Shown: positions 47,397 to 48,375 of the stretch, piece after piece
Layout: every line of letters begins with the position of its first letter
Position numbering within the stretch: the first letter of the stretch is position 1
The notes under the pieces: generated by a model
The model's input: the letters and a program-made list of their open reading frames with translations, nothing else
Database searches by the model: none
What the model was told of the DNA's origin: nothing
From: Mesorhizobium sp. RMAD-H1
Lineage (GTDB): Bacteria; Pseudomonadota; Alphaproteobacteria; Rhizobiales; Rhizobiaceae
Direction: 5' to 3'
Assembly (NCBI RefSeq): GCF_014191375.1
Contig: NZ_JACHWN010000008.1
Location: 186,001-250,000 of the forward strand
Length of the DNA stretch: 64,000 bases
Made by a program: the position numbers and the translations under genes

Positions 47397-47495
47397 TCGA
47401 TTGGGGGCGGCGCCTGGCAGAGATGCCGGCGCCGCTTTCGGTCATGGGAGGCCGGTTCAGAAACGACACAGATGGTTCGACAATTCTTAACCGGG

Positions 47496-47510
47496 TTAAC
47501 CCTTCATTAA
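47496..47510. promoter_or_regulatory. CtrA box upstream of the sRNA candidate
   Basis: TTAACCCTTCATTAA: perfect TTAA-N7-TTAA. TTAAAT at 47522-47527 could be the -10. Confidence 0.7.
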
Positions 47511-47532
47511 TCCTAAGCGTGTTAAATGCTTG

Positions 47533-47631
47533 ATATCCAGTTCGTCTGGATACTTACCGAGTGGTTTTGCCACTCTGTTTGACGCCTCCCTGTTAAACTC
47601 CTGAGAGCCGCCTTTGCGGCTCTTTTTTTGT
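47533..47631 (+). ncRNA. Candidate small RNA with three hairpins
   Basis: Three clean stems follow one another: TATCCAG-TTCGT-CTGGATA (47534-47552), GAGTGG-TTTTG-CCACTC (47559-47575) and the terminator AGAGCCGC-CTTT-GCGGCTCT with seven T (47604-47630). The single-stranded stretch between stems 2 and 3 carries CCTCCC (47585-47590), able to pair with ribosome sites. A perfect CtrA box and a -10-like TTAAAT lie upstream. The size of about 98 bases is typical of trans-acting sRNAs. It is not matched here to a named family. Confidence 0.65.
47602..47631 (+). terminator. Terminator of the sRNA candidate
   Basis: AGAGCCGC-CTTT-GCGGCTCT followed by TTTTTTTG. Confidence 0.9.
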
Positions 47632-47661: not shown

Positions 47662-47676
47662 TTAACCCTTTCTTAA
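47662..47676. promoter_or_regulatory. CtrA box upstream of the RcdA-like gene
   Basis: TTAACCCTTTCTTAA: perfect TTAA-N7-TTAA; a TGTATT at 47696-47701 may be the -10, giving a leader of about 140 bases. Confidence 0.7.
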
Positions 47677-47850: not shown

Positions 47851-48375
47851 ATGATTGAACATGAGTGCCGGAACGACAATACCATTCGGTTGGCCGAGCG
47901 CGTCGTCTTCTCCGATTCGTTCAAACCCCTCTACAAGGAAGGCATGGGCCTGGTCGAGGAAGCCGCGGCCTATCTCGACGGTGCCGGTCGTGATGAATCG
48001 AAAGCCCTGTCGCGCTCCGCGGCGACCTTCTATGCCGCCGAATCGATGCGCCTGACGACGCGCTTGATGCAGATCGCCTCCTGGCTTCTCCTGCAGCGTG
48101 CCGCGCGCAACGGCGAACTGACCCGCGAGCAGGTGGCGCTGGAAAAATCCAAGGTCCGCCTCGATACGCCTTCGGCCGCGGATACCCTGCCGGGCTGGGC
48201 GGAAATGCCTGCGGATTTCGTCGATCTCATCGAACGGTCGCTGCGGCTGCAGGATCGCGTGCGGCGCATGGATGACGAGATTTATGGCGAGCACAGCCCG
48301 TCGCGTGCGGCGGCGAACAGCAATCCGGTATCGGACCAGCTGGTGCTTCTGCAGACGGCCTTCGGCGGACGCTAG
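47851..48375 (+). CDS. rcdA: DUF1465 / RcdA-like regulator of CtrA degradation
   Basis: 174 residues. The DUF1465 pattern: LAERVVFSDSFKPLYKEGM, EEAAAYLDGAGRDE, LTTRLMQIASWLLLQRA, and LPGWAEMPADFVDLIERSL. RcdA of Caulobacter, the studied member, is an adaptor that helps ClpXP degrade CtrA and TacA. The length is close to RcdA, and a perfect CtrA box stands upstream, the same control known for Caulobacter rcdA. The symbol is by family and context and not by alignment. Confidence 0.8.
   Translation: MIEHECRNDNTIRLAERVVFSDSFKPLYKEGMGLVEEAAAYLDGAGRDESKALSRSAATFYAAESMRLTTRLMQIASWLLLQRAARNGELTREQVALEKSKVRLDTPSAADTLPGWAEMPADFVDLIERSLRLQDRVRRMDDEIYGEHSPSRAAANSNPVSDQLVLLQTAFGGR

What the first reader, a model, noticed from the sequence alone, without database searches (positions are those of the whole stretch)
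47496..47631. CtrA-linked candidate small RNA with three tandem hairpins upstream of an RcdA-like gene
Seen: a perfect TTAA-N7-TTAA box, a -10-like TTAAAT, then three well-separated stems ending in a strong intrinsic terminator, with CCTCCC exposed between stems 2 and 3 (anti-ribosome-site-like). Nothing in the 454-base gap encodes a protein. Known: CtrA binds TTAA-N7-TTAA; cell-cycle-linked sRNAs of about 100 nt exist in Rhizobiales (EcpR1 of Sinorhizobium is one to compare). Inference: a cell-cycle-controlled trans-acting sRNA.
Basis: partly seen in the sequence, partly recalled or inferred. Interest (0 to 1): 0.7.

Follow-up and report, generated by a model that had tools for sequence, protein, structure and literature searches.

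The report
CtrA-linked small RNA beside rcdA
This is a small bacterial RNA of an already catalogued family with no known job; [quoted passage not shown]

Summary
Window 47533-47629 is a member of Rfam RF02356 (BjrC1505; 80.6 bits, cut-off 50) and probably of the rhizobial family sm84/SmelC671/ReC71. It is not EcpR1. The RNA family is known, but I found no published function. The CtrA link, which I did not find in print, is strongly supported by comparison. TTAA-N7-TTAA in the -35 position is present (7 or 8 of 8 letters) in 80 of 80 loci picked by their rcdA gene alone (71 perfect), 40 of 40 order-wide loci, and 29 of 30 class-wide loci found with a promoter-free model; background windows reach this in 0.2-0.5%. 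The half-sites are nearly fixed while the 7-base spacer varies. A second CtrA box lies before rcdA, which seems to have its own -35/-10. This may explain why CtrA binds the S. meliloti rcdA region although rcdA did not respond to CtrA depletion. Likely mechanism (inferred): CtrA switches on a ~97-nt anti-Shine-Dalgarno sRNA. Its CUCCCUG motif is kept in nearly all loci; the longer core UUUGACGCCUCCCUGUU is nearly fixed except in Rhizobium/Sinorhizobium-type loci. Targets are unknown; my target test did not beat its control.

The parts
47496..47510 (.). CtrA box 1, TTAACCCTTCATTAA, in the -35 position of the sRNA promoter; an extra TTAA half-site lies at 47487-47490
   Evidence: 7 or 8 of 8 letters in 80 of 80 rcdA-anchored loci
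47522..47527 (+). -10-like TTAAAT; related loci show ATTACT-like letters 27-32 bases after the start of the box
   Evidence: column counts
47533..47629 (+). sRNA, about 97 nt (5' end predicted, not measured)
   Evidence: with the 5' end set 38 bases after the box start, 96-101 nt in the nine loci printed, against 100 nt reported for SmelC671
47534..47552 (+). hairpin 1
   Evidence: 2 pairs changed on both sides
47559..47575 (+). hairpin 2; most order-wide members carry CUCCUG in this loop, the window and the 18 named loci of the alignment do not
   Evidence: 3 pairs changed on both sides
47577..47598 (+). weak hairpin 3 presenting CCUCCC (47585-47590), part of the core UUUGACGCCUCCCUGUU
   Evidence: no covariation
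47603..47629 (+). intrinsic terminator with seven T
47662..47676 (.). CtrA box 2, TTAACCCTTTCTTAA, upstream of rcdA
   Evidence: 7 or 8 of 8 letters in 75 of 77 loci scored
47684..47713 (+). predicted own promoter of rcdA: CTTGCG, 18 bases, then CAGTTT (majority letters in related loci CATTCT)
   Evidence: column counts in 75 loci
47851..48375 (+). rcdA: DUF1465 / RcdA, which acts in CtrA proteolysis in relatives
   Evidence: PF07323 2.6e-56; PDB 3ctw RcdA 7.1e-37; role

Best explanation
The region encodes a trans-acting sRNA of family RF02356 whose transcription depends on CtrA. Phosphorylated CtrA binds TTAA-N7-TTAA where a -35 hexamer would be and recruits RNA polymerase to a -10 box; transcription starts near 47533 and stops at the terminator (about 97 nt). 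The RNA shows a CCUCCC-containing core that pairs with GGGAGG-type Shine-Dalgarno sequences and represses translation of a set of mRNAs late in the cell cycle. The next gene, rcdA, has its own promoter and a second CtrA box. Shown by comparison: the RNA, most of its structure, its terminator, and selection on the CtrA box at a fixed place. Inferred: that CtrA binds and activates; pairing with ribosome sites; timing. Unknown: the target mRNAs.
For: RF02356 at 80.6 bits over a cut-off of 50; family found in 254 of 297 order genomes. Box 1 at 7 or 8 of 8 letters: 77 of 77 rcdA-anchored loci scored, plus the 3 of 80 that my text pattern missed; 40 of 40 order-wide loci; 29 of 30 class-wide loci found with a promoter-free model. 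Background: 11 of 5048, 3 of 672 and 7 of 1304 windows. Spacing 7 stands out: 29 of 30 against at most 12 for spacings 3-6 and 8-12, 40 of 40 against at most 14. Half-site columns 73-77 of 77 identical, spacer columns 29-66 of 77, 55 distinct spacers in 77 loci. Structure covaries. A CtrA-like regulator, recognised by recalled motifs, is encoded in the same genome.
Against: No expression, binding or depletion data for this organism. In S. meliloti CtrA binds the rcdA promoter region but rcdA did not change on CtrA depletion; small RNAs are not mentioned in that main text. Hairpin 3 has no covariation. The long core is not universal: 42 of 80 rcdA-anchored loci keep only CUCCCUGU, and L029, L032 and L059 differ inside CUCCC itself. 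Ribosome sites that pair with more of the core are rarer than a control with rearranged letters (149 vs 245 in 31 genomes, own genome 5 vs 16), and their share of transport-binding proteins is like the control's.
Confidence: 0.75

Rival explanations
1. The RNA is a terminated leader of rcdA, i.e. a cis-acting attenuator, and box 1 is simply the distal CtrA promoter of rcdA.
For: An RcdA match follows on the same strand in 40 of 40 order-wide loci, and the RNA lies before rcdA in the 80 protein-anchored loci. rcdA of agrobacteria has multiple start sites and CtrA-like sites.
Against: A strong terminator ends the RNA; rcdA has its own conserved CTTGCG-N18-CATTCT promoter after it. Of 30 class-wide loci 11, all outside the order, show no RcdA match (2 of the 11 are cut short by a contig end, and one distant query can miss diverged RcdA), so the RNA does not seem to need rcdA next door.
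Confidence: 0.12
2. CtrA represses rather than activates the sRNA, so that the RNA appears when CtrA is absent.
For: A box covering the promoter could also block polymerase (inference; no call).
Against: A site at the -35 position is the layout of most CtrA-activated promoters in Caulobacter (start of the abstract of PMC11264516 in the listing), and the sRNA promoter has no -35 hexamer of its own, since those columns lie in the variable spacer.
Confidence: 0.12
3. It is the EcpR1 sRNA of Sinorhizobium, or a close relative of it.
For: Similar size; EcpR1 is a rhizobial sRNA acting on cell-cycle genes.
Against: EcpR1 lies downstream of divK-pleD, beside rpmG, with loop UCCGCCGCAUCU, while the SmelC671 family has CUCCCUGU. 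Rfam puts the window in RF02356.
Confidence: 0.01
4. The conserved boxes serve only rcdA, and the sRNA is made constitutively.
For: Published CtrA-site predictions and the ChIP peak are credited to rcdA (passages).
Against: Box 1 keeps 86-96 bases to the sRNA core while its distance to rcdA varies widely, and class-wide it goes with the RNA also where no RcdA was matched.
Confidence: 0.08

Closest known systems
Rfam RF02356 BjrC1505
   Same: Above the gathering score over all 140 model positions; same core; RcdA lies downstream in 40 of 40 order-wide matches examined.
   Different: The model match starts at 47489, so its first ~45 positions fall on the promoter and CtrA box rather than on RNA; the window clade has a shortened hairpin-2 loop without CUCCUG.
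sm84 / SmelC671 (S. meliloti), ReC71 (R. etli)
   Same: 100-nt transcript by RNA-seq; sm84 listed with ~80 nt detected (column heading not seen); CUCCCUGU motif, terminator, relatives from Brucellaceae to Methylobacteriaceae (passages; sections). The same locus in six Sinorhizobium-type loci predicts 98-101 nt.
   Different: Identity rests on motif, length and distribution; the S. meliloti sequence was not in hand, and that SMc03989 is rcdA was not confirmed. Four loci of the Rhizobium/Sinorhizobium type scanned were missed or scored below cut-off by RF02356.
CcnA (Caulobacter)
   Different: Encoded at the replication origin, 182 nt; its authors saw no clear homologue in S. meliloti. RF02356 rings in 0 of 14 control genomes; the control list shown includes Caulobacter vibrioides.
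suhB / MmgR, RF00519
   Same: CCUCCCU before a GCCGC terminator stem.
   Different: 25.9 bits, under its cut-off of 41.
SmelA075/SmelA099 and AbcR1, anti-Shine-Dalgarno sRNAs
   Same: Pairing loops complementary to ribosome sites (passages).
   Different: SmelA075 and SmelA099 have several CCUCCUCCC loops and many copies; here there is one copy in the own genome and, in the window, one such core.

Membership tests
RF02356 BjrC1505 | covariance-model score above the curated cut-off of 50 bits | tested here: met
   80.6 bits, positions 1-140
RF02356 BjrC1505 | conserved structure kept by changes on both sides | tested here: met
   8 of 23 pairs, 0 of 500 shuffles as high; not for hairpin 3; 7 Rhizobium-type sequences were left out of the alignment
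Direct CtrA regulon | TTAA-N7-TTAA at the promoter, conserved beyond chance | tested here: met
Direct CtrA regulon | CtrA bound there in vivo | not testable with these tools
   S. meliloti ChIP-seq has a site in the rcdA promoter region (passages); the text seen does not tell box 1 from box 2
Direct CtrA regulon | RNA level depends on CtrA | not testable with these tools
   no data found; rcdA itself did not respond
EcpR1 | locus downstream of divK-pleD, beside rpmG | tested here: not met
   flanks are opgC and rcdA; EcpR1 context
EcpR1 | loop UCCGCCGCAUCU | tested here: not met
   absent from the sequence by eye; motif
suhB / MmgR RF00519 | score above the cut-off of 41 bits | tested here: not met
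   25.9 bits
Anti-Shine-Dalgarno sRNAs | C-rich core complementary to ribosome sites | tested here: met
   CCUCCC in a core nearly unchanged in 58 sequences; CUCCCUGU alone in 42 of 80 loci
Anti-Shine-Dalgarno sRNAs | defined target mRNAs | tested here: inconclusive
   no enrichment over control

The most novel reading that the evidence does not exclude
RF02356 is an ancient post-transcriptional output of CtrA: an anti-Shine-Dalgarno sRNA paired with rcdA throughout the Hyphomicrobiales and found beyond them in other lineages of the Alphaproteobacteria, and the CtrA peak that has been credited to rcdA mainly drives this RNA.
Probability: 0.55. Interest if true: 0.78.

Novelty: new member of a known kind. 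Interest (0 to 1): 0.62.

Why it matters
It gives an orphan sRNA family, in print since 2008 as sm84, a likely regulator and a place in the cell-cycle circuit. It also offers a simple test of an open puzzle: why CtrA binds upstream of rcdA in S. meliloti although rcdA transcription did not follow CtrA depletion. If true, CtrA has a conserved RNA arm in rhizobia and their relatives, beside CcnA in Caulobacter.

Tried and rejected
EcpR1 identity: rejected by locus and motif.

Small peptide: an 18-codon frame from 47526 exists, but a frame of 12-30 codons from ATG ends at that TGA in only 4 of 29 loci with the same core, and only 7 of 58 transcripts hold any frame of 15 codons or more inside them.

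Targets: the only exact 12-base complement of the core outside the sRNA lies near the 3' end of a 507-codon frame (acyl-CoA-synthetase-like by eye), away from a start. Ribosome-site matches ACAGGGAGG-N3-10-ATG looked rich in transport-binding proteins, but the control CAAGGGAGG is commoner (245 vs 149 sites in 31 genomes, own genome 16 vs 5; my sums). I fetched 40 of 149 and 40 of 245 sites and kept ORFs of 100 aa or more (28 and 31): binding proteins 12 of 28 against 10 of 31 by eye, Fisher p 0.43; Pfam tallies point the same way. Leaders of ctrA (own genome) and gcrA (21 genomes) were run through simple duplex folding, which ignores inner structure and told nothing.

A first structure string had hairpins 1 and 3 in wrong columns, corrected. 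Searches were failed scripts, replaced by 65.

Rows dropped: of 69 sequences tried for the alignment, 4 were not found by my pattern (L125, L059, L072, L042) and 7 Rhizobium-type ones (L037, L045, L046, L049, L053, L064, L070) were left out because their hairpin 2 and core differ; 58 were used.

Literature: the ten searches gave no paper tying this sRNA to CtrA; of the papers opened I saw passages, abstracts or single sections only, and no supplementary files. The original BjrC1505 paper is recalled, not seen.

Full report
What is there. The gap between an opgC-like gene (ends 47396; Pfam OpgC_C) and an RcdA gene (47851-48375; DUF1465, the one PDB match is RcdA 3ctw, E 7.1e-37) holds an sRNA gene on the + strand; ruvC follows rcdA. 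Rfam scanning gives RF02356 BjrC1505 at 80.6 bits over a cut-off of 50. The next family, suhB/MmgR, is below its own cut-off (25.9 against 41). The predicted RNA, about 47533-47629, lies in a stretch that folds with z -7.0 against shuffles, with four hairpins. The own genome has one copy.

Conservation of the RNA. RF02356 matches 254 of 297 genomes of the order at E up to 0.001, 222 of 297 over the cut-off, and 32 of 289 genomes drawn from the class, 3 of those 32 from the same order. I took 40 order-wide loci from 26 handle families, chosen among the better-scoring matches; an RcdA match starts 114-501 bases after the RNA, on the same strand, in 40 of 40. In 58 aligned sequences the core TTTGACGCCTCCCTGTT is almost unchanged. 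That alignment leaves out 7 Rhizobium-type sequences that I had found and 4 that my pattern missed. Over the 80 loci anchored on RcdA, 35 carry the long core (6 of them with GATG for GACG), 42 keep only CUCCCUGU, and 3 differ (L029, L032, L059). On the 58 sequences the four-hairpin structure has 97.8% paired cells, 8 of 23 pairs with changes on both sides and 18 such cells, reached by 0 of 500 shuffles and by no slid version. Hairpin 3, which shows CCUCCC, has no such change, so its support is by energy only. Relatedness of the sequences limits what the shuffles prove.

The CtrA box. The window has TTAACCCTTCATTAA at 47496-47510 and TTAACCCTTTCTTAA at 47662-47676. The whole own genome has 27 sites of the form TTAA-N7-TTAA (the pattern read backwards gives 35, so the motif as such is not enriched genome-wide); about 0.025 pairs this close would be expected by chance. 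Three sets were then scored. (a) 80 named loci, the 80 kept of 287 found, picked only by their RcdA protein: my text pattern found the sRNA in 77; box 1 is present at 7 or 8 of 8 letters in 77 of 77 and perfect in 68, against 11 and 0 of 5048 background windows. The 3 loci it missed (L029, L032, L072) also carry a perfect box, making 71 perfect of 80. (b) The 40 order-wide loci: 40 of 40 at 7 or 8, 17 perfect; background 3 and 0 of 672. These were found with RF02356, whose model includes the promoter, so set (b) alone could be biased. (c) To remove that bias I built a model from the transcribed part only and searched 387 class genomes: 59 of 387 have a match, 64 matches in all. I examined the 30 for which loci were given (27 outside the order): 29 of 30 at 7 or 8 and 12 perfect, against 7 and 3 of 1304 windows; the exception has 6 of 8. 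The same test with spacings of 3-6 and 8-12 gives at most 12 of 30, and in set (b) at most 14 of 40. The background windows come from the flanks of the loci, without regard to genes, so a purely intergenic background may be higher; I did not compute one.

The footprint. In set (a) the eight TTAA letters are identical in 73-77 of 77 loci, while the seven spacer columns reach only 29-66 of 77; there are 55 different spacers. The box keeps 86-96 bases from the CUCCC motif. The -10-like letters ATTACT start 27 bases after the box start, so the box sits where -35 would be and there is no separate -35 hexamer.

The neighbour. Box 2 is at 7 or 8 of 8 letters in 75 of 77 loci. It lies upstream of a conserved CTTGCG, then 18 bases, then CATTCT. 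So rcdA seems to have a complete promoter of its own, while the sRNA promoter appears to depend on CtrA. Pini et al. 2015 (PMC4433202, passages) found CtrA bound at the rcdA promoter region by ChIP-seq but no significant change of rcdA on CtrA depletion. My reading, an inference, is that the bound site serves the sRNA. Earlier predictions of CtrA sites at rcdA (PMC3616915 and PMC2877005, passages) and multiple rcdA start sites in agrobacteria (PMC10469942, one section) fit but do not prove it.

What is known. The family appears as sm84 (PMC2573895, 2008; listed with ~80 nt and a sigma-70 promoter; passages), SmelC671 (PMC2873474 and PMC3927594; passages, sections) with a conserved CUCCCUGU motif, and ReC71. 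The link of SmelC671 to RF02356 rests on motif, length and distribution, not on a direct sequence match, and I could not confirm that SMc03989 is rcdA. EcpR1 is a different RNA (PMC4414408, abstract and passages; PMC12403871, passages). CcnA of Caulobacter is a CtrA-circuit RNA but at the origin of replication (PMC4287350 and PMC8959179, passages). None of my ten paper searches showed this sRNA tied to CtrA.

Mechanism and limits. The most likely function is translation control through the CCUCCC core at ribosome sites. I looked for targets and failed: longer matches at start codons are rarer than a control with the three letters before GGGAGG rearranged (149 vs 245 sites in 31 genomes), and the share of transport-binding proteins is 12 of 28 against 10 of 31 by eye (p 0.43). 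So no target is claimed. Expression, CtrA binding and CtrA dependence are untested in this organism.

Verdict. A known sRNA family with a newly supported regulator. Ordinary as an RNA, interesting as a conserved CtrA output beside rcdA.

Noticed in passing
window 47489-47535 against RF02356 positions 1 to about 47: The Rfam model seems to include promoter DNA with the CtrA box as if it were folded RNA; several of its pairs there are broken in the window. The family boundary may need trimming.
   Followed up: partly
L029 and L032 (two Rhizobiaceae MAGs), upstream of rcdA: Both keep perfect CtrA boxes and the terminator, but the CUCCC motif is changed, a natural core variant.
   Followed up: no
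G472:C10:43-325 and G640:C6:79516-79798 (same handle family, outside the order): Two copies of the sRNA within about 300 bases in each genome.
   Followed up: no
G000:C1:761129-761207: Another pair of TTAA-N7-TTAA sites, starts 64 bases apart, in the same genome; possible strong CtrA target, genes not read.
   Followed up: no
L037, L046, L070, L073 (Ensifer, Pararhizobium, Agrobacterium, Sinorhizobium): The syntenic sRNA has a different hairpin 2 (CAGAC/GTCTG by eye in three of the four) and is missed or scored below cut-off by RF02356, so the family may be undercounted in these genera.
   Followed up: partly
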